Positions 8,193 through 64,000 of a stretch of 64,000 nucleotides of DNA are shown here, piece by piece. Position 1 is the stretch's first letter. Each line of letters begins with the position of its first letter. Origin of the DNA: Pelodera strongyloides (Eukaryota > Nematoda > Chromadorea > Rhabditida > Rhabditidae); assembly GCA_036852015.1 (NCBI GenBank), contig JAANDG010000146.1, positions 62,001 through 126,000 on the forward strand, read 5' to 3'. A model generated the notes under the pieces. That model ran no database searches. It was not told the origin of the DNA and worked only from the letters and a program-made list of their open reading frames with translations. The position numbers and the translations under genes were made by a program.

Positions 8193-11100
8193 CTATTCCT
8201 TATTCCGATGCGCAAAGTAGAGCTTGGAGTACTCGTATGATCCTATCATAATTGCGCACGCCGGAGCAATTTTCATCACACGAGGTATCGTACCTGAAAT
8301 GAAATACATAGTCAACCAATTATTTATTAAATCCAAAGTGTAGTGTGAGCTTCTAACCACCTCATGTCATACGGTAACTTCATGGTCCACACCACAGTAA
8401 GTAAAGAATACTTACAACAATAAGCAAAGGAGTAATAAATCATACATCGCCGACATAATATCCTCATACCTCACTAATCAATACAAATCCTTATGATTCT
8501 CTTTCTATGATTACATTCACCACTCACGTTAGAATGCTATTTTCTGTCCCCAGGGAACATTTCCCCGAGGGAATCGGAGTGGTGAATAGCGCTCTGAACC
8601 TTTTCTGCTCTCGTACTATCTACGCACTGTTTAGCTCCCTGGGGAGGCCAGGGAGAGCTCCCTGTTTGTTGGCGAATATGGCCTCTGGGAACCCGTTCCC
8701 AAACTCCCCTCCCAAATAAAGAAAAAAGCTCCGCACCTGCCCACAACGACTTGATGCCCCTTGTCTCCACCAAGTGCCTCATCACAGCCAACGTGGTCGT
8801 GTTCCCATTATGCGGTTTCTCACCACTTAGCGCTTTGCCCAGTAAGATCTGGCGCTGCGTCTTCACAACGTCGAATGGCACTGAAAAGAAGTGAATAGGT
8901 ATCTATACACTACATAGGTCTTACGTCTTAGGCACTATACAGACCAGAGGCCATATTCATCACTTCGATTCCCTCGCGGAAATAGTCCCTGGGGACAGAA
9001 AATAGCATTCTAATGTGAGACACGCAGAGAAAAAGAGGGAATTCCCCATGGGGAATTGAGTGTTGGATATGGCCTCATAGGATAGGTACTACACAGGTCT
9101 CACCGCTTTTGTAATGAGTCTAATAAATATTCAAGCTGTGTTTCCAAAAATCTGACGTTGGGTTAAAACAACATCGAATGACATCAAAAATAAACGCGTA
9201 CTGTTCCCAATATATCGTATACGGTAGTTCTAATTTCAACACTAGAGATGCTTCGGCACAAAATAAAACAAATATGCGTGAATATGGTCATCTAAATAAA
9301 TACGGTGATTCCTCTGACACTCGCTCACATGTTCTCGTATAGAATCTCGGAACTAAGACCGTACCTGTACAAAGGGCCGCAATGGTGCCCGCACCGGCTC
9401 CACAAACGAACGAGTGAAAGAACGTCGTCTCTTTTCGGCCCAGGTACCGCAATAGACGCATCTTGAACAGTTCGTAGCCCGCCCAATAGATCGCTAAACA
9501 CAGAGCAGTACACTTCGATATTACTACAATATTACTGGTGCCATAATAGTAATTACTGTTGTCATAATAGTACAACATCATTGATGCAAACCAGCACAGC
9601 TAGATAGAAAGACGTCACCTTGTTCTCCAACCTGAGACGGATATTGACATGTTTCACTCAACTTTTAAATGTTGCGCCCAGTGTGCGGACCGTGTTCTGC
9701 GGGTGCTCGATGTGCCACGCGGGTCTTTCGAACAATCTTTATTTAGTTGGTTATATTATTTAGTTAAAAGAGAGAAGAGGTGATGTCCAACAACTGGACA
9801 CTAGGAGTACAGTTCCTCAGCAACTGAGGTGTGGGGAGATTGTTCTGCAACAGAACAAACTGGAGATGAGCCCCAGCAACCGGGACTACCGTCAAAGCAG
9901 CGTCAAAGAGTTAACCTAACCTCCACTTAAGTACTGATGATGGTGGGCGGAGCCTATTACATCATGCGGGGCAAGATATTAATAAGAAATATGCGCGCAA
10001 TTAATCGAATAACAACAAAATGTGAGTCATGAGGAAGAAAGTTAACTCAAAAGTTTATTGATTATTGTATAGTTTCCTAAAGGATATAAGGAATAAAGTG
10101 AAGGATAAAGGCAATTGAATCTATAATAAGTGCAAATTTAGCATAATTATGCACACTCCCCCCGAGCGAAAAAAAAGGGAGATTGGCGAATATGAAATAA
10201 CATTGAAGCATCAAATAAGAATACTGCAATAATAATGTTACTCATGTTACTCAACTACCAACAACATCAATAGGGGACATGTTCAGCAATTTTATACTAC
10301 AACGAATGTAGTACGGCAATGATGTAGAATTGTAGAACTGCAGCCGCAGCAGCTGTGGCAAACAGACGACTACGACGGTAGACTGACAGCAACTGTTCAA
10401 TCACGGAGATGGTCCAGTAGTGCTCGACGACTTCAGGACGGCGACGACGGGAGACATACTGACAGGCGGCTGTGCAGTCTCGAAGATGGTCCAGAAGTGC
10501 ACGACGACTTCTGGACGGCGAGTACGGGAGACTGGCCGGCGGCTGCGCAGTCTCGGAGATGGTCGTCTGGACGGCGACGACGGGAGACTGACAGGCGGCT
10601 GTGCAGTCTCGGAGATGGTCCAGAAGTGCACAACGACTTCTGGACGGCGACGACGGGAGACTGACCGGCGGCTGTGCAGTCTCGGAGATGGTCGTCTGGA
10701 CGGCGACGACGGGAGACTGACAGGCGGCTGTGCAGTCTCGAAGATGGTCGTCTGGACGGCGACGACGGGAGACTGACAGGGCTGTGCAGTCTCGGAGATG
10801 GTCCAGGAGTGCACGACGACTTCTGGACGGCGACGACGGGAGACGGGAGACTGACAGGCGGCTGTGCAGTCTCGGTGATGGTCGTCTGGACGGCGACGAC
10901 GGGAGACTGACAGGCGGCTTTGCAGTCTCGAAGATGGTCGTCTGGACGGCGACGACGGGAGACTGACAGGCGGCTGTGCAGTCTCGGAGATGGTCGTCTG
11001 GACGGCGACGACTGGAGACTGACAGGCGGCTGTGCAGTCTCGGAGATGGTCTTCTGGACGGCGACGGCGGGCGACGGGAGACTGACAGGTGGCTGTGCAG

Positions 11101-14100
11101 TCTCGGTGATGGTCGTCTGGACGGCGACGACGGGAGACTGACAGGCGGCTGTGCAGTCTCGGAGATGGTCCAGGACGGCGACGGCTGGATGGCGACGGGA
11201 GACTGACAGGCGGCTGTTCAGTCTCGGAGCTGGTCCTAGAAGTGCACGACGACTTCTGGACGACGACGACGGGAGACTCACAGCAACTGTTCAGTCTCGG
11301 AACTGGTCCTAGAAGTGCACGACGACTTCTGGACGACGACGACGGGAGACTCACAGCAACTGTGCAGCCTCGAAGAGGATCCAGGAAGTGCACGACGACT
11401 TCTGGACGACGACGACGGGAGACTGACAGCAACTGTTCAGTCTCGGAACTGGTCCTAGAAGTGCACGACGACTTCTGGACGACGACGACGGGAGACTCAC
11501 AGCAACTGTGCAGCCTCGAAGAGGATCCAGGAAGTGCACGACGACTTCTGGACGACGACGACGGGAGACTGACAGCAACTGTTCTGTCTCGCAAAGGGCG
11601 GTCAAATAGCAACAATTGACGCACGAGTGGAACATCCGCAACGGTTGCTTCTGAAGAGTTGCACAACAGGCAGCTGTTGCGAACGAAGAGGAGAACCACA
11701 TCAGATGTGGCTTTCAGCAACCATAATTGAAGAACTTCGGTGCAGATACAGTAGCAACTACTGGTCTGCGCGGGCGGCGTAGATTCAGAAGGAACGGTGC
11801 ACCATGTGCGGACCGTGTTCTGCGGGTGCTCGATGTGCCACGCGGGTCTTTCGAACAATCTTTATTTAGTTGGTTATATTATTTAGTTAAAAGAGAGAAG
11901 AGGTGATGTCCAACAACTGGACACTAGGAGTACAGTTCCTCAGCAACTGAGGTGTGGGGAGATTGTTCTGCAACAGAACAAACTGGAGATGAGCCCCAGC
12001 AACCGGGACTACCGTCAAAGCAGCGTCAAAGAGTTAACCTAACCTCCACTTAAGTACTGATGATGGTGGGCGGAGCCTATTACATCATGCGGGGCAAGAT
12101 ATTAATAAGAAATATGCGCGCAATTAATCGAATAACAACAAAATGTGAGTCATGAGGAAGAAAGTTAACTCAAAAGTTTATTGATTATTGTATAGTTTCC
12201 TAAAGGATATAAGGAATAAAGTGAAGGATAAAGGCAATTGAATCTATAATAAGTGCAAATTTAGCATAATTATGCACACCCAGTAGGACTTAAACAGTTG
12301 AGCCAAAGTATCTGTGCACATTCACATACGTGCACATTCACATACGTACACACACGTACATGCTAATTCATACTGTATTTTTTTTTTGCTTTCTCCTAGC
12401 ATTAGAACGTTTCCAAAATGTCCATCCCGAACGATGAATCTGCATGAGAACCTTTCGGAAAGGGCATCCCGAACGCGCCCTAACAATAAAGAAAGATGTT
12501 TTACATATTTTCAATAATCTACATTATAAACTAACCCGAGAACGGAATATCCCTGCATAACGTGGGCGCCCATCCCAGGTAGAATCCCCTCCATCCATAC
12601 GTTTCAACTGATGCCCGGACAGCACGACCAACGTCTAAAGCACGAATTATTACTGTATTCACCAACACACAGGGAGTACTCCCTTGGCGCAGGAGCGCTC
12701 TGAATCTCTTCTGCTCTCGCGCTCTCTACGCACTCTTTAGCTCCCTGGGGAGGCCAGGGAGGGCTCGCTGCGTGTTGCTGAATACGGCCTCTGATTGATA
12801 CCTTAGGGCTCCCTTTGGTTCTTTACAAACCGGTTCCCATTGCACGATCGCAACGTCAACAAAGAATAATATTGATAATGTTATTATTTCAAAAGTCAAG
12901 CAGGTCGTGTACAATACAAACATAGAAAATCATCAAGAAAACAACAACTAAACATATTATTGTATTCATACGGAACACTACAGGACAAAAATAAACAATG
13001 CGCAGCCTTCATCCCTTATCATCCTGGTAGTCATTAAAACAAGTTACACAATATGGGAATACATAATGCTATGTTTCAAAAATTGGATGTTATACCGCTT
13101 CAAGAAACATAGACAACTAGAAATTCACCCACCAGTATAACTCATCCTCTCGCTCTGCATCTTCGTTCGCACCATCTCAATCGGTGACACAACCGTGACA
13201 GCTGGAATAGAAAACAGTTACAGTTTCACTACACTAGATTATAAGAGAGAAAAAGGAAAATTATTTGTTAAAAAATAGAACACCACATGGACCACACTAC
13301 TAAACAATGTGACAATAAAAACAATCAACACACTGTAATATCGTTGCTTATCACTTATAGATAAAGGGAGATAGTCCTGCAGAGCACGTACATACTTGTC
13401 AAATGCAAACAAAACTGGGCTACCGGGCAGAAACGGAGTGTTTTTCATACTATCAAGATAACAAGAAGATGTATCAATTGTAGGGTTCTTTTGCATATTT
13501 GCATGCATTCCCTGTAATAATTACTAAATTCTTAAACTCAAAAAGCCCACCAATCGCCCTCGCTATCGAGCCGGCCACCATTGGCGCCACCCATGCAGAA
13601 TGCGGAGAATATCGACATTTCAACTTCTCATGAAGGCGGTCGTACACAGAGAAATAGAAGACGGTTGCAGGGATGGCCATCATTCTGAAATAATATCGAT
13701 TAATAATAAAATAATAATAATAATAATGCAAAGGAGTAGTTACTCCCTTTACTCTCTGAGACCTGGTTGCATTAGTTGGTACATTTGCTTCTCGATGTTT
13801 CAATGAAACTTTATACACCTCACAAACAAAACACTTCGATTGTCCTTGACCACTTCTCTGTTAATCTCCGACCAAATGCGCGCCCAAATTGTGGCTTTCG
13901 ACCCCACCGCCGACGTTAAATATGACTGAAATTTGCAGTGCCGACCCTTTAGCAGTACAAATAGTGTAGCAGTACAGTAGACAGCAGCAGTGAACGCATG
14001 CCAGCCAAACTGACCCAAGTCTGACCCAGGTCCGACCCAACTGGCGCGCTTGCAGCCCTTCCGCATGCACATCGCATTTTTCACGATGATTTTTTCAATT

Positions 14101-55475: not shown

Positions 55476-56526
55476 CTCGATAAATCTACCAATCTACTTT
55501 ATTATACAAAAAGAACGTCTGTAGTTTGCATAGCATAAAAAAGTAGAAGAAAGAACGCTTCGCGACACTTTTTTTTCGAACGAAAGATTAATTGAAAAAT
55601 TTTCTTATCTCGGAAACGCGATCTAAAAAAAAACTTAAAAAAAAAAACTCTCGGGACTGTTGAGGAACAAAATCATGTGGCAAAGTTACCAGTACTCAGG
55701 GGTAACCCCCAATTTTCAACATTTACTTGTTAATAAGAATTTGTAATGAACCACGAAACTTACTTAAAGCGGTATAACACCCGGTTTTTCGTCCCATGTA
55801 GCGTATGCAAATAACTGCGCGGTACTGCGCGATTTTTTATGCTAATTATATTGTGTCCGCGTGATTGCGTCTCTACGTATGCGAGTAGCGTTCGCGTAAT
55901 AAATTATCAGTATTACTATTACAATAAACACTACCCGAGAAATCTTATCAAAACTATTTATCAGTTATATTATAGTTATCACTGATCATTTGATTTTATT
56001 TCTCTCTTTTTACTAGTATCGTCTGCCAGCCTTTCGATGATATGCCTGTGACAAGATTATCATTTTCATTGTTTTTAAGCGGAAATATAATTTTCGTCCG
56101 TGAAAAATTGAACGCATTTCATAGAAAATTTCCCGAAATGGGCCGCGCACTTGGAAAATACTATGCTATTGAGCTACACCCTATAACCTTTGAATAATTG
56201 CATCAGGTTAAATTATTCATGGGAATTTTTTTTCTGATTGAGGGAAGCCACGCTTATAAAGTTATGCATTAGTCTTGGTTTTTACTTCCGCTCACCTTGA
56301 TAATCAAGGTAGTAAAAGTAAAATGGTATTCTTTCATTTGTATTTTTTTCATCTATTTAAAATATATTTGAGTTGACAGGTGTTTTGGTCCTGCTTATTT
56401 TTATTTATTGTTCCAGAACTGCATGTATTACATCGCTTTCTTTTCGCCACTTATATCTATTACTTATACGATCAGCTCATGATTTTCGTAATATTTTTCA
56501 AACAGATTTCTATGCTTCACATTAAA

Positions 56527-56707
56527 TTAAAGCGAAACACCGGCCGTTTTGGAAACGCATCGCGGACAACTGAATTCTTACGTATTTATGCTAATTTGCT
56601 CGAATTTAGCTCGATTTTTGATTATAATTTATGTTCATTTGCATAAGCTGCACAAGAATGTTGGTGTATTCGATTCGTTTCAAAAACCGGCCGGTATTTC
56701 GCTTTAA
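56527..56707. repeat. Palindromic MITE, GAAATACCGGCCGG family
   Basis: Left end TTAAAGCGAAACACCGGCCG; right end AACCGGCCGGTATTTCGCTT. The centre is in the opposite orientation to most copies. It abuts a second palindrome, sharing TTTAA. Confidence 0.8.
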
Positions 56708-56854
56708 AGCGGTATAAAATTATGTTGGACGCCAAATTCCCATCATTCCCATGTAGTGCTAGTTTTTATTCTAATTATTATCAGTTGCATTGATGATATG
56801 GTAATGCAGGTGTTCATCACGCGTTTCAAAAACCAGCTGTTATACCGCTTTAAC
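56704..56854. repeat. Palindromic repeat, TTAAAGCGGTATAAAATT
   Basis: Left end TTAAAGCGGTATAAAATTAT; right end CCAGCTGTTATACCGCTTTA. It follows the previous MITE without a gap and ends about 30 bp upstream of the transporter's first coding exon. Confidence 0.65.
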
Positions 56855-56882
56855 ATCACTAATTTCAGTAATAAATCCACTG

Positions 56883-59800
56883 ATGTTGTTCGACATCAAC
56901 CGCTTCCATTTCTTTGTCTTAATAACATGGCAATTTGCCATTTTCTTCGCATCACAGCAAATTTTTCCGATATTTTCAAATTATTTGCCGCACTGGAGCT
57001 GCGATGATGGGGCACCGACTAAGGTGGGTAAATTTTTAATCATGTATTTTCTTTTACACGCAGGGTCCCATGTTGACATGTTGATGTCCCTCATCTTAGG
57101 GTCCTTTTTGGTCATTTAAAAACTAGTTCGCATTGCTTGCCTCATCTATATCGAGTAAATATCTTATTATATTTCCATGAAGCTTCATTAGTTGATGGTA
57201 ATTAGATCTATTCTTAGGTCGTAACTTTACGCTTGGTATTGTTCTAGGGTTTATCTTCTACCTGCGCTATGCAAACTCTTGGGTTTACGTTTACGCTTTT
57301 CAAACTGTGGCATTAGCCCTAGGAGTACCCGTCAACTTACATAGACTGGAAATTGTTCAAAATACAATATTTCGCTATTCAGGATTGCTCTGTCTATTTG
57401 GAATGCAACGGGACGATAAAATTCCATGATTCGGCATTTGCCTCGGCGGCACTAGAGTGAGATTTTCGGATTTACCTACGTTGCCCTTCTCGTCGTTGGC
57501 ACCTTGTGTTTGCCTGTGGAATGGCTATTTACCGAGGCCTATACTGAAGCGCTTATTCTTGTGCTAAGTATCCTAGTTCAGAAAAATTCCGATTCCAACA
57601 AATTTATCTTCACCGCTGTTACCACACTTTCAAGAGAAAAAATGTGTAAGCATGAAAAAAAGAGCTACCAAATTTTTCATGGAACTGTTCCTTTAGATAC
57701 GGTTGGATATGCGGTCCAGATGCGTACCTCGCCTCGCTCTTCTCGCAAATCCAATTCGCCGGCGTCTTGCTGGGAACTTTTTCGTTCGGAGCGATTTCTG
57801 ACGCCATAGGCCGAAAGCCAATTGCCGTCTTGGCAATGACCATTGGAGTAATTATGAACTTTGTCACAGGTATGCGTAGAATAATTTATTAAGGTAATTG
57901 CGATCGCGCTGAATCTGACAAATAACTTAATTTTCTAAAGTCTCCCAATTGATATTCCACAAGCGATATCCATTTACAATGATTGTGTAGAGAATGGGGA
58001 CAGTCTATTGAGTACCCTAGCTCCCTTTGAGTATATTCCTTTCCGGCGAGTTATCTCACCACTATGGCAATCAGCTCACCATTAGCCATTTAGCTGTCCA
58101 TACAATTACAGGTCAACCACCCTCCTGTAATTATCCTGTAATTACAGAACAATCCACTTACAATTATCCCGCAATTACAGGTCAACCACCCTCCTGTAAT
58201 TATCCTGTAATTACAGAACAATCCACTTACAATTATCCCGCAATTACAGGTCACCACCCACCTGTAATTAGCCTGTAATTACATAACAATCCACTTACAA
58301 TTATCCCGCAATTACAGGTCACCACCCTCCTGTAATTAGCCTGTAATTACATAACAATCCACTTACAATTATCCTGCAATTGCAGGTCATCACCCTCCTG
58401 TAATTAGCCTGTAATTACATAACAATCCACTTACAATTATCCCGCAATTACAGGTCACCACCCTCCTGTAATTAGCCTGTAATTACATAACAATCCACTT
58501 ACAATTATCCCGCAATTACAGGTCACCACCCTCCTGTAATTAGCCTGTAATTACATAACAATCCACTTACAATTATCCTGCAATTACAGGTCATGACCCT
58601 CCTGTAATTAGCCTGTAATTACATAACAATCCACTTACAATTATCCCGCAATTACAGGTCACCACCCTCCTGTAATTAGCCTGTAATTACATAACAATCC
58701 ACTTACAATTATCCCGCAATTACAGGTCACCACCCTCCTGTAATTAGCCTGTAATTACATAACAATCCACTTACAATTATCCCGCAATTACAGGTCACCA
58801 CCCTCCTGTAATTAGCCTGTAATTACATAACAATCCACTTACAATTATCCTGCAATTACAGGTCATCACCCTCCTGTAATTAGCCTGTAATTACATAACA
58901 ATCCACTTACAATTATCCCGCAATTACAGGTCACCACCCTCCTGTAATTAGCCTGTAATTACATAACAATCCACTTACAATTATCCTGCAATTACAGGTC
59001 ATCACCCTCCTGTAATTAGCCTGTAATTACATAACAATCCACTTACAATTATCCCGCAATTACAGGTCACCACCCTCCTGTAATTAGCCTGTAATTACAT
59101 AACAATCCACTTACAATTATCCTGCAATTACAGGTCATCACCCTCCTGTAATTAGCATGTAATTACATAACAATCCACTTACAATTATCCCGCAATTACA
59201 GGTCACCCCCTCCTGTAATTAGCCTGTAATTACATAACAATCCACTTACAATTATCCCGCAATTACAGGTCACCACCCTCCTGTAATTAGCCTGTAATTA
59301 CATAACAATCCACTTACAATTATCCCGCAATTACAGGTCACCACCCTCCTGTAATTAGCCTGTAATTACATAACAATCCACTTACAATTATCCTGCAATT
59401 ACAGGTCATCACCCTCCTGTAATTAGCCTGTAATTACATAACAATCCACTTACAATTATCCTGCAATTACAGGTCTGGCTCCGAATTGGCAGATCCTTCT
59501 CGGCATCCGTTTCTTCGTCGGTCTCTCCATCGGAGGCACCCTGGTTGTCGTGTGCACTTTCGTAATGGAAATGCTGCTCCCGAAACAGAGAATGGCACTA
59601 CGAGCATTCTTTAACTGGGTGAGCTTCAGTAGAAAATTAGATATAACATAACTCAAGCTCTTTGCATAACTCTGTGCTCATCGGAACGGTCAAGTAATTT
59701 GGAACGGGAGGGCGTGCGGCGCAGTGGCAAGCGCCTTGCTCCACGCCACCGGTGGCTGGTTCGAGCCCGGCCCGGAACCCCTTCACCCACCAAAGGTGTA

Positions 59801-62800
59801 AAAGTTGGTAGCTGGCTAAAACCGGCGGAGATAAATAGGCTTTCCCGAGAAAATTGGCCTCCGGGAAGTTTAAAGGCCAGGTCCGGCTTCAGAAATGAAC
59901 AGGACCCCGGGACAACTGAACTTACGTATTTACGAATTTAACTCGATTTTTTATTCTAATATATGGTCATTTGCATAAGCTGCATAAGAATGCCGGTGTG
60001 CTCGTTGCGCTTCAAAAATCGGTCGTTATTTCGCTTTAATTCATTTTTATAGGGTGTCGCTCGTCTGATGGTAACTCTTATTTGCTGGCTTTGGCCCGAG
60101 TGGAGGGCGGCTTCAATTGGATGCGCGTTGACTGCAGTTCCTGCAGTACTCATTCTCATATTCGTGTTCCCCGAAAGTCCGACCTGGCTTCACAATAAGG
60201 TAGGCTAGTTGTCGAATGATAGACTATTCATATTTATGCATTGAATGCCCAGCGCGAGCATAAGCAATTAATAATTATTATAATAATTTACCACATCAGG
60301 GAGATGCGCACAAAAGCCAACACAGAGTAAAATGTTTCAAAAACAAATGAGTTCTATTGAATGGAGATAAGGACACAAAAGTAGGAGTTTTGGGTCTTAT
60401 AACAAGAGAATAGCGTTTCTTAGCCGAGCACTACGAACCCAGTAGCTGGACACTCTCGGACACTAACACACATAAGCGTGCACAGACCCAGGGTTACGTC
60501 AGTGACAATACATACTTATATACGCTCCCAAGTGTTGTCACTTATTGTCGGAAATTACCGCATCCAGACGGGATACGATGCGGATCCAATGGTGAGCGAG
60601 GATATCGCCGCACACGCGCTGCTTGGCCTTGTGCCAAGGTGGCAGACTTAATGTATCCTATTACATGGTCGTCTCGACGAGATGCGCGCATCCGAGAAGA
60701 AGATTGCACGATTTGCTGGTGTAGAATACGTGCCAATTGCACATAAGAAGCTTGAGAAGACAAAGGTTAGTCTAAATTGCCCATTGATTGAAGTAATCAG
60801 CGAAATTCGTGTATCTTGAACTACCCAAAAAACGGTGAATTTTAATGAAGTCAGGAACAGGTCCTATAAAGCCTAAGCCTAAACATGCCTATTTTCTATT
60901 TTCAGTCATTCTGCGAAATGATGCACACCGGCGGTCTCTACAAACGTTTGATGGTTCTGTGGTCGATGTGGTCAGTTACTTCAGCTTTCAATTGTTTGGG
61001 ATTACTAAAAGGTGCCGTAGGATAGTCGAAGAGAGAAAGAGAGAAAGAGAGAGAGAGAGAGAGATTGAGTTCCGTAGTTGGGTATTTGCAGTAGCTAGAG
61101 TGAACCTCCTTCAACTGTAGGTACTGAAATTTGAAAATGACACGTTTTGTCGAAATTATTTTTTTAAATAAAAAAAACCTCTAACTCCAGGTTCACCGCC
61201 TCCATCTGTGGATATGCGACAGATCTGAATTCCAATACAATTTCCGGAGATCTTTTCCTCAACCAAGTTCTATTCTCTATTCTAATCGCCGCTTCGAAAA
61301 TGGTAAGCGTTGCATACAGTAGCAGTGAATTTTCATGGGAGGTCTTGAAGGTGTCCTGGGAGGGAGGAACATGTCCGTTCGGTCATGGTTACTTCCTGCG
61401 TGGTCTGGGACTCTTCGTCGGTGGTTCTGTTTACTTCTCGGATTGCCCAGGACGTTTCCTGGGCGGACATTCCCGCTTCCATGGTGGTATTTTTCATTCC
61501 TTGGGTGGTCCTATTAAACTTCGTGCTCCTGGACTCTTCGACGGCGGTCCTGCTTCCTGGATGGTCCTATTAAACTTCGTGCTTCGGGCCTCTTCGAGGG
61601 TGGTCCCTGCTTCCTGGATGGTCCTATTAAACTTCATGGGTGGTCTCGTGGGTGGCCCGTGCTTCCTGGGTGGCCTCCAACAATATGTTGATTTCAGTTT
61701 CTGGTCGTCGTGGACAGTCTCCTTCCGGGTTTCTCCCGTCGTGTCCTTCATCAAGGCAGTCAACTGGTCGTCTGCGTCTGCTTCTTCGTCCTCACAATCA
61801 TGACGATTCGGGGAAATACGGTAGGTATAAGTTTATGAACAAATCGATAACTACACTATTTCTCCTACTTTATCTACCAAAATACTGTAACCACGCCACG
61901 CTTCATTGAGTGATAAATAGTAAATGGCCTATCGCCCATGCGGGTAAATGATTAAAACAAATGTTGGGGGTTCCGCTCGTCCAATAGCCGAAAAAAGACG
62001 AGAACTACATTGCATGACGCGCAAAAATAGTTGTTTGGTAGTTCAAGTTCAGAGACCAAGATACTCGTTCTAGGCACAAAGTAAAGTACTCTCCTGAGAC
62101 CATATTCACCACTCTGATTCCCTCGGGGAAATATTCCCTGGGGACGGAAAATAGCATACTAACGTGAGACACACAGAGAAAAAGACGGGGAATTCCCCAT
62201 GTGGAATCGAGTGGTGAATATGTCCTTTGATTGCTATTATCTATTCTGTACCATGTTTAGCACAGCACCCTGTTCCTCGCCGTAAACCTTCTGGGCACCG
62301 TCTTTATCGAGTACACGTGGGATGCGTGCTATTTGTGCGCCGTCGAGTCAATGGAGACATCGTGCAGAGCGTCGGCGACCGGAAGTTGCTCATTCGTCGC
62401 CAGGATCGGTGCCATCATTGCGCCATTTGTGAGTAGTATTTGCGAATTAAAATTTTATATTCTTATAGCATACAGTTTCACGTAGGCGTTGCGAACACAC
62501 ACGCGCTTTAGCACTTAGAATGACTGTTAATTTCAAATAGCTGTGCATTGAGTGGTGATAATTGTAAAGAGCAGTGTTTGAAATTTATGAGCAGCACAAC
62601 GCGAAACTCTGAAACATATGAAAAGGGTGCGCGGCGCTTTCGCCCAATCTTCGCCCGGTTTTTGCCAAAGGGGACATCAGTGCACTCGCTCAGTTCTGGC
62701 GACAGTCCGGCGAAGTGCGCGGCGAAGCATGGGCGAACCGGCGAACCACCTTTATTCGCCACGCACCAACAGAGTTTCGTCAATGCAACGCTAACACGTA

Positions 62801-63409
62801 GCACTCACAGGCACTTTTCAACTAATAAGCTTAACTTACAGTTGAACTACCTCAACACCTCGTGGTCCTCATCCTTGTACCTCACAGTCGTTATACTTGG
62901 CACGGTCAACCTCGTCGTGTCCTACTTCCTTTTGGTTGAAACAAAGGTAAGTCGTTTAAAGTGGTATAGCAAATGAAGTGTATCTTCCTATTGGTTCAGA
63001 CGAAGCTCAAAGTTCAATCAATCCGGCTTAGGATACGAGAATATTTTGCACTCCCCATCTTAGCCATTCTCGCCTCGTTTTATCCCATGAGAACAAAGCG
63101 AACGTCTACCGTAAATAGGTTTTGAATACACACGCTGCTCTTCATCAATCACTGATAAAATAAAGCCGCGCGCAAATCTGGCACACGCGCAGCACAGATC
63201 TGGCACACGCTTAGCACAGATCTGGTACACGCTTAGCACAAATATGGCACACGCTCGGCACAGGGATTGCGCAGCAATGACTGCGCATGTTTTCCATGTA
63301 ATCATAATTATTCATTTAGAATGTCAACCTCGACAACGTGCACGTAGACGAAGAAGAAACCACGAGTACGCCCGAGGAGAGTGCAATGTTAGAGAAAATA
63401 ACGGAATAA
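56883..63409 (+). CDS. SLC22-type organic ion transporter (MFS)
   Basis: Predicted 12-TM plasma-membrane carrier for organic cations, anions or zwitterions; the substrate is not readable. Exons: 56883-57023, 57383-57456, 57697-57869, 59473-59618, 60053-60199, 60667-60765, 60906-60970, 61191-61302, 61698-61820, 62261-62428, 62842-62946, 63320-63409. Frames agree; 480 aa. Family marks: the Cys-rich first extracellular loop (WSCDD ... DCSVYLECNGTI ... YGWICGPDAY), the MFS motif GAISDAIGRKP (residues 103-113), FPESPTWL, then GYATDL, and EYTWDACYLCAVESMETSCR near the C-terminus. The N-terminus is shorter than in typical SLC22 proteins, so a further 5' exon may exist; the acceptor TTTCAG at 56863-56868 would fit either cis- or trans-splicing. 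Exon 6 has no AG at its expected acceptor (60665-60666 is AT). Intron 3 is a tandem array. Confidence 0.9.
58088..59472 (+). repeat. Tandem array, about 21 units of 68 bp, each carrying the intron's 3' splice site
   Basis: Unit: TAATTACATAACAATCCACT, then TACAATTATCCCGCAATTACAG, cut here to CCGCAATTACAG, then GTCACCACCCTCCTGTAATTAGCC. The last unit ends CTGCAATTACAG exactly at 59472, which is the acceptor of exon 4 (the exon begins GTCTGGCTCCG). Every upstream unit has the same CAATTACAG|GTCA sequence. Two unit types differ together at two sites (CCCGC...GTCACC versus CCTGC...GTCATC). Confidence 0.9.
59706..59785 (+). repeat. tRNA-like sequence, probably a SINE head
   Basis: Plus strand: GGCGCAGTGGCAAGCGCC resembles a D arm with A box. 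GCTGG-TTCGAGC-CCGGC forms a complete T arm with B box. The anticodon region is irregular. A dispersed-repeat fragment follows (CTTCAGAAATGAACAGGACC), then a decayed GGCCGG-type MITE to about 60040. Confidence 0.5.
61480..61660. repeat. Tandem GGTGGTCC/TATTAAACTTCGTGCT repeats in transporter intron 8
   Basis: Three or four copies of CCTGGATGGTCCTATTAAAC then TTCGTGCTTC of about 55-60 bp. They keep an open frame from exon 8 into the intron (61300-61803), but the protein-level homology resumes only at 61698 in another frame, so this is intronic. Confidence 0.7.
62094..62229. mobile_element. MITE, TTCTGTCCCCAGGG group
   Basis: Begins CTGAGACCATATTCACCACT, contains the inverse of AGTATGCTATTTTCCGTCCC, and ends GGTGAATATGTCCTTTG. 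Transporter intron 9. Confidence 0.7.
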
Positions 63410-64000
63410 ATATTAATATTATTAATAATAATATTAATTATCACTACCTAGTTTTTTACTCTATTTTATCATCTTATTCGTCATACTAGCAGAATAGCAT
63501 AAAAAACAATCGCTATATCTTTCATCTTTCCTATCTAAAATACGCGATATTTTCACGTGCGCCGCGGAGGATTTCATGGTGCGCGGAAATACAACAGTCT
63601 CGTAGCGCAAATAAGACAAATAATAAATATTGTTCCTATGATTCTCAAATAGAGATTCAACTACTTATCATTTCATTGTTAGTGCCTTTCATTATTTCAC
63701 TATCATTAGTCCGTATTCTCGGGCTGCACGGAACTTCAAAAATGGGAACATGTTCCGGGAAAATATCCGCGCGGAAATCTTCCGCTGCGGAAATGGTTCC
63801 GCTCTGGATGGGCACCAGAATACGAATCGAACGGAACATGTTCCATGTAGTTTAAAACTTTCATATTTTGAGTTTATACTATATATTTTTTATTGTTTTT
63901 ATATATAATTTAACACATTTGTTCTTTGTTTAAAGCCAAATACCGGCCGGTTTTTGAAACCCATCGAGTACTCCCTGCTTTCCTATGCTTCATATGCAAA
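63410..64000. other. 3' flank of the transporter and start of another palindromic MITE
   Basis: The stop codon is embedded in GGAATAAATATT, which doubles as a possible AATAAA signal. The rest is AT-rich with a pairing motif GAACATGTTCC (63750, 63833). From 63930 a GAAATACCGGCCGG-family element begins (TTTAAAGCCAAATACCGGCC) and runs off the window. Confidence 0.6.

What the first reader, a model, noticed from the sequence alone, without database searches (positions are those of the whole stretch)
58088..59472. An intron made of about 21 copies of its own 3' splice site
Intron 3 of the SLC22-like gene is largely a 68-bp tandem array in which every unit contains CAATTACAG|GTCA. The last unit supplies the acceptor of exon 4. 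The spliceosome therefore faces about 20 near-identical upstream acceptors yet must use the last one, or the gene makes a family of isoforms. An upstream unit would insert in-frame or frame-shifting repeat sequence depending on position: 68 mod 3 is 2, so frame would rotate with unit number. The array seems to have grown from the exon boundary, and array length polymorphism could alter splicing.
Basis: partly seen in the sequence, partly recalled or inferred. Interest (0 to 1): 0.8.

Follow-up and report, generated by a model that had tools for sequence, protein, structure and literature searches.

The report
Intron array of repeated splice acceptors
In a nematode transporter gene a 68-base repeat has copied the end of an intron about twenty times, so the cell has to pass over some twenty look-alike cutting sites and use the last; similar repeats are known in amphioxus, so this is a striking example rather than a new kind of thing.

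Summary
Intron 3 (57870-59472) of a 12-exon MFS/SLC22-like nematode gene holds a 20.2-copy, 68-bp array (58103-59475, 97% matches), found nowhere else in the assembly. It has 21 acceptor cores; the last is exon 4's acceptor, fixed by a gap-free protein alignment across the junction. The isoform idea fails: all 20 upstream acceptors enter one frame and meet a stop within 5-55 codons (18 of 20 within 9), so upstream use would give NMD-type transcripts. Each core is followed by GT (AG|GT, a potential dual-specific splice site). In 20 of 20 upstream units a 9-bp hairpin just downstream can close the acceptor; the last lacks it because exon 4 begins there. But the last can pair upstream, and in wider folding windows it is not clearly more open, so structural masking is only suggestive. 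Closest known: amphioxus 'mirage' minisatellites (tandem copies of intron-exon boundaries, reported not to disturb splicing) and human UBC's AGGT array. Best reading: a boundary minisatellite grown from the native acceptor, tolerated because exon 4 with its donor selects the last site and NMD clears errors. No RNA evidence was available.

The parts
58103..59475 (+). 68-bp minisatellite, 20.2 copies (units 1-2 are 69 bp, unit 17 is 67 bp), ending 3 bases inside exon 4
   Evidence: TRF; unit listing; found only here
57697..57869 (+). Exon 3, ending CACAG|gtatgc (phase 1)
   Evidence: Protein alignment; gene model
57870..59472 (+). Intron 3, 1603 nt
59464..59472 (+). CAATTACAG, the acceptor that gives exon 4; lacks the downstream hairpin partner
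58103..59404 (+). 20 upstream acceptor cores CAATT[AG]CAG, each followed by GT (AG|GT) and by a 9-bp hairpin partner
58141..58147 (+). Extra ATTACAG inside unit 1 (likewise 58210-58216 in unit 2); units 3-20 have ATTACAT there
59473..59618 (+). Exon 4, 146 nt, donor TGG|gtgagc
56883..63409 (+). Whole gene: 12 exons, conceptual 480-residue MFS/SLC22-like transporter (PF00083, PF07690); exon 6 was joined by homology although no AG precedes it

Best explanation
This is a boundary ('mirage'-type) minisatellite. A stretch containing the native acceptor of exon 4 and its first three bases was duplicated in tandem, then expanded and homogenised to about 20 copies (inferred). It could grow only on the intron side, because the last copy must keep acceptor and exon intact; that is why it ends at the exon start (inferred). 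The functional mRNA must join 57869 to 59473 (shown by protein conservation). The upstream acceptors are decoys: mostly as strong as the last by sequence, but any mRNA made from them carries an early stop (shown) and should be removed by nonsense-mediated decay (inferred). The last acceptor is preferred (inferred) because it is nearest to exon 4 and its donor (exon definition), and perhaps because each upstream acceptor can be closed by its own downstream hairpin, which the last one lacks.
For: Array and register; exon 4 start fixed by homology; paralogue with the same intron position and phase, ACAG|GT acceptor, about 163 nt by reading, no array; 20 of 20 upstream acceptors give early stops; on a small matrix 19 of 20 upstream acceptors score 6.2-7.95 against 7.95 for the last, unit 1 scores 1.35; intron 3 minus the array is of ordinary length; 20 of 20 upstream acceptors have a -9.2 to -11.0 kcal/mol downstream fold that pairs 9 of 10 bases, the last 2 of 10; the repeat RNA folds beyond all 200 shuffles; precedent in amphioxus with regular splicing (PMC3087553, abstract and passages).
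Against: No RNA data, so use of the last acceptor in cells is inferred from coding need. The last acceptor still pairs upstream (-7.9 kcal/mol, 9 of 10 bases). In sliding-window folds 3, 11 and 3 of the 20 upstream acceptors are more open than the last at windows 80, 150 and 240, so hairpins may not single it out. Exon overlap of the unit is only 3 bases. Exon 6 of this gene has no AG acceptor, so the allele may not be fully functional.
Confidence: 0.66

Rival explanations
1. Recursive or error-correcting splicing: every unit carries AG|GT, so each is a potential 67-69-nt intron, and a transcript spliced to an upstream unit regenerates a donor (CACAG|GTCACC) that can be spliced on until the last acceptor is reached.
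For: 21 AGGT sites at unit spacing, the last at the exon 4 junction; CAGGTCACC scores 3.84 against 1.68-10.59 for the gene's own 11 donors, one of which also starts GTCA; human UBC shows that arrays of AGGT dual-specific sites can really be used (PMC10809524, abstract and two sections).
Against: 8 of the 11 real donors score higher (tiny training set, and the real donors were scored leave-one-out); C at +3 is rare in donors (recalled); the hairpins would hide the site; no lariat or RNA data.
Confidence: 0.1
2. Regulated unproductive splicing: the number of units sets the share of transcripts caught on decoy acceptors and sent to NMD, so repeat number tunes the dose of the transporter.
For: 20 of 20 upstream acceptors give early stops; an intronic VNTR in human TERT is reported to affect expression through alternative splicing and NMD (PMC11830802, passages).
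Against: Nothing here bears on selection for copy number; no second isolate; no RNA.
Confidence: 0.12
3. Splicing is a bystander: a palindrome-rich minisatellite (its TAATTA/CAATTA cores, about four per unit by eye, resemble homeodomain sites, a recalled motif) arose in the intron and by chance ends at the acceptor.
For: Minisatellites are not rare here: 4 TRF rows of period at least 20 and at least 4 copies in the 64-kb window, this array being one, and arrays in 2 of 8 sampled 5-kb stretches, so some will end at splice sites by chance; unit similarity to exon 4 beyond 3 bases is not significant.
Against: The paralogue's acceptor is also TACAG|GT, and the array ends within 3 bases of the boundary.
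Confidence: 0.1
4. Assembly artefact or wrong copy number.
For: Tandem arrays are often misassembled (general knowledge); the amphioxus BflGb6 mirage is reported as aberrantly assembled in the draft genome (PMC3087553).
Against: Units carry variants that are phased across the acceptor in 19 of 19 internal junctions, which argues for real sequence; the copy number itself could not be checked.
Confidence: 0.05

Closest known systems
'Mirage' minisatellites of amphioxus (Adh3, BflGb6, BflGb9), PMC3087553
   Same: Tandem minisatellite copies of an intron-exon boundary, on the acceptor side in BflGb6; many units with AG/GT; authors report that regular splicing seems undisturbed; concerted evolution inside clusters, with cluster boundaries excluded from it.
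   Different: BflGb6 has 6 or 3 units of 150-160 bp with an exonic part; here about 20 units of 68 bp with only 3 exon bases, 97% matches, and a strong hairpin at each upstream acceptor; a nematode.
Tandem dual-specific (AGGT) splice sites of human UBC and VCX3A, PMC10809524
   Same: Each repeat unit carries an AG|GT that could serve as acceptor or donor.
   Different: UBC units are coding, 228 nt (a multiple of 3), and give real isoforms; here units are intronic, 68 bp, and lead to stops.
CBS 31-bp VNTR, c.1444_1467+7(16_21), PMC2630376
   Same: By its coordinates, a 16-21-unit VNTR that spans an exon-intron boundary.
   Different: Donor side, human, shorter unit.
TERT VNTR6-1, PMC11830802
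   Same: Intronic minisatellite with strong nucleic-acid structure, reported to affect splicing.
   Different: Lies about 3.5 kb from the affected exon; G-quadruplex; the unit is not described as the splice site itself.

Membership tests
Mirage-type boundary minisatellite | Tandem repeat unit spans an exon-intron boundary | tested here: inconclusive
   Unit covers intron end, AG and 3 exon bases; further exon similarity not above chance
Mirage-type boundary minisatellite | Repeated splice signal (AG/GT) in the units | tested here: met
   21 AGGT at unit spacing
Mirage-type boundary minisatellite | Length instability between alleles | not testable with these tools
   One assembly only
Mirage-type boundary minisatellite | Regular splicing not disturbed | not testable with these tools
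   No RNA data
Dual-specific splice-site array (UBC-like) | AGGT site used both as donor and as acceptor | not testable with these tools
   Needs junction or lariat reads; as donor CAGGTCACC scores within the range of the gene's donors
Dual-specific splice-site array (UBC-like) | Unit length keeps the reading frame and gives coding isoforms | tested here: not met
   68 bp; 20 of 20 upstream acceptors lead to stops
MFS / SLC22-like transporter (host gene) | MFS or sugar-transporter domain over most of the protein | tested here: met
   PF00083 E 1.1e-30 (residues 61-459), PF07690 E 6.5e-15; 75% identity to a Caenorhabditis nigoni protein

The most novel reading that the evidence does not exclude
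A self-locking acceptor array: each duplicated acceptor carries its own hairpin lock (CAAUUACAGG with CCUGUAAUUA ten bases further on), and the true acceptor is the only one whose downstream lock half is replaced by exon. The repeat would then contain both the decoy and the device that silences it, so that it can grow without harm.
Probability: 0.15. Interest if true: 0.65.

Novelty: new member of a known kind. Interest (0 to 1): 0.42.

Why it matters
It is a natural competition assay: some 20 acceptors with nearly the same upstream bases differ mainly in position, downstream hairpin and exon context, so one long-read cDNA experiment could tell which of these the nematode spliceosome follows. 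It also shows how a minisatellite can take in a splice site and leave the protein intact.

Tried and rejected
Protein isoform family: rejected, stops in 20 of 20. Dispersed transposon or introner end: not supported; the unit is found only here, the palindrome CCTGTAATTACAGG occurs at two places in the assembly, neither in this array, and no Rfam family reaches its gathering score in 56500-64000. Hairpin masking of all but the last acceptor: only partly borne out. It is clear in 32-nt local folds. In sliding-window folds (chance that the last four bases are unpaired, last acceptor against upstream median) it is 0.0054 against 0.00017 at window 80, 0.0015 against 0.0016 at window 150, and 0.0016 against 0.0005 at window 240; 3, 11 and 3 of the 20 upstream acceptors are more open than the last. 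Unit extending well into exon 4: not significant. A degenerate unit left of the array: weak (70 of 1000 shuffles as good).

Full report
WHAT IS THERE. TRF finds an array at 58103-59475 with period 68, 20.2 copies and 97% matches. Splitting at the acceptor core gives 21 cores, from 58103 to 59464, spaced 69, 69, then 68 bp except for one of 67. Of the 20 upstream cores 19 are CAATTACAGG and unit 5 is CAATTGCAGG. The 13-mer CAATTACAGGTCA is found 19 times here and 3 times elsewhere in the 160-Mb assembly; a backwards control also gives 3. The 68-bp unit gives 20 matches, all at this locus; its inner 23-mer gives 20 here and one 3-mismatch match elsewhere, control 1. Units 1 and 2 are identical to each other and 69 bp long, and they carry a second ATTACAG, so intron 3 has 23 ATT[AG]CAG in all. 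Two unit types exist: one ends CCCG and is followed by GTCA[A/C], the other ends CCTG and is followed by GTCAT. The two sites agree in 19 of 19 internal junctions (13 of the first type, 6 of the second); unit 20 is of the CCTG type and runs into exon 4 (read). Such a mosaic is what unequal exchange or conversion leaves in a real array (inference).

THE GENE. Anchored on protein similarity, the gene runs from 56883 to 63409 in 12 exons and reads 480 residues (exon 6 joined by homology, see LIMITS). It matches PF00083 and PF07690. Over the 377 residues queried it is 75% identical to a Caenorhabditis nigoni protein and 73% to a Mesorhabditis belari one (158 proteins found among the 7996 candidates scored, best 120 listed). 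So the host is a nematode (inference), with no very close relative among the 120 listed. SLC22-like is a fair name: one listed homologue is called solute carrier family 22 member 15.

THE ACCEPTOR. Exon 3 ends in phase 1 at 57869 and exon 4 starts at 59473. In an alignment with 18 homologues, which I chose from the 120 listed, none of the 18 has a gap at this junction. A paralogue on contig C4 (L035) has an intron at the same place and phase, about 163 nt long by my reading, with acceptor AGTACAG|GTTTGG and no array. So ACAG|GT looks native to this boundary, and the array probably copied it. With 3 exon bases in the unit the overlap is slight; further similarity is not above chance. Without the array intron 3 would be about 230 nt, inside the range of the other ten introns (140-467 nt).

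CONSEQUENCE OF UPSTREAM USE. From exon 3 every upstream acceptor is entered in one and the same frame. All 20 give a stop before exon 4: 17 after 9 codons, unit 17 after 5, units 1 and 2 after 55 and 32. A functional isoform family is excluded unless a further splice follows.

WHY THE LAST ONE? Sequence strength cannot decide. On a small matrix from 9 other acceptors of this gene the last scores 7.95; of the 20 upstream ones 5 score the same 7.95, 13 score 6.42, unit 5 scores 6.22 and unit 1 scores 1.35. Two features set the last apart. First, it adjoins exon 4, whose donor is 146 nt downstream; upstream choices would lengthen exon 4 by about 68 nt per unit (exon definition; inference from established knowledge). 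Second, structure: each upstream core can pair with CCTGTAATTA ten bases downstream in the same unit. In 32-nt folds 9 of 10 bases are paired at -9.2 to -11.0 kcal/mol in 20 of 20 upstream units; at the last core exon 4 follows, the fold is another one (-8.6 kcal/mol) and only 2 of 10 are paired. The repeat RNA is far more structured than shuffles that keep its first 12 bases: three units -42.5 against a mean of -17.4 (s.d. 5.1), 0 of 200 as low; acceptor unpaired 1.3e-5 against a shuffle median of 0.018, 0 of 200 as low.

AGAINST MASKING. The last core can pair upstream too (9 of 10 bases, -7.9 kcal/mol), as can the other units except unit 1 (none) and unit 17 (weak). In sliding-window folds the last four bases of the last acceptor are unpaired at 0.0054 against an upstream median of 0.00017 (window 80), 0.0015 against 0.0016 (150), and 0.0016 against 0.0005 (240); 3, 11 and 3 of the 20 upstream acceptors are more open than the last. 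The gene's other ten acceptors lie at 0.006-0.46 over the three windows. So most array acceptors, the last one included, are unusually closed, and the idea that hairpins pick out the last is only partly supported.

AG|GT. All 21 cores are followed by GT, the AGGT motif of dual-specific splice sites. In human UBC such an array is used for real, and introns using such sites are reported 8.4-fold enriched in tandem-repeat genes (PMC10809524, abstract and two sections read). Here each unit could be a 67-69-nt intron, and a wrong splice could in principle be spliced again. As donor CAGGTCACC scores 3.84; the gene's 11 donors score 1.68-10.59 (leave-one-out), 8 of them higher. I give this a low probability.

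KNOWN KIND. Amphioxus Adh3 and globin genes carry minisatellite-like copies of intron-exon boundaries called mirages. BflGb6 duplicates the 3' end of an intron with the 5' part of exon 2, in 6 or 3 units by haplotype; many units have AG/GT, and the authors' RT-PCR suggested no interference with regular splicing (PMC3087553, abstract and passages). The CBS VNTR, by its name c.1444_1467+7(16_21), spans a donor boundary (PMC2630376, passages). Intronic minisatellites have been tied to alternative splicing in C. elegans (CeRep25B, PMC4039745, abstract and passages) and in human TERT (PMC11830802, passages). In the listings of my searches of the held library I saw no nematode case of a repeated acceptor; most lists were cut to the best rows, and the library lacks most subscription papers.

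LIMITS. No RNA, no second isolate, no orthologous intron of a relative and no reads were available. Minisatellites are not rare in this genome (4 TRF rows of period at least 20 with at least 4 copies in the window, this array included; arrays in 2 of 8 sampled 5-kb stretches and in none of three other fetched stretches), so one that ends at a splice site is not astonishing in 160 Mb. Exon 6 (60667) has no AG directly before it: the nearest AGs end at 60638 and 60645, and a stop in the required frame (60649-60651, read) lies between them and the exon. The allele may skip exon 6 (99 nt, phase 0 on both sides), use a non-AG acceptor, or carry a defect or a sequence error.

Noticed in passing
60667 (exon 6 start): The conserved exon 6 (GRLDEMRASEKKIARFAGVEYVPIAHKKLEKTK) is preceded by ...ctattacat, not AG; no AG lies between the in-frame TAA at 60649-60651 and the exon. 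Non-AG acceptor, in-frame exon skip, sequence error or a decaying allele.
   Followed up: partly
58141-58147 and 58210-58216: Units 1-2 carry a second acceptor-like ATTACAG that reads ATTACAT in units 3-20: the acceptor motif may have been copied at two levels, inside the unit and with the unit.
   Followed up: partly
59705-59900: Intron 4 holds a tRNA-like stretch with a B-box-like GGTTCGAGCCC, perhaps a tRNA-derived SINE (by eye; no Rfam match at gathering score).
   Followed up: no
61497-61635: A second, short tandem array (period 56, 2.4 copies) in intron 8 of the same gene.
   Followed up: no
10365-11591: Large GC-rich compound minisatellite with 56- and 73-bp periods among others.
   Followed up: no
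L035 (C4:668001-677500): A paralogous transporter gene on another contig with the same intron position and phase and no array.
   Followed up: partly
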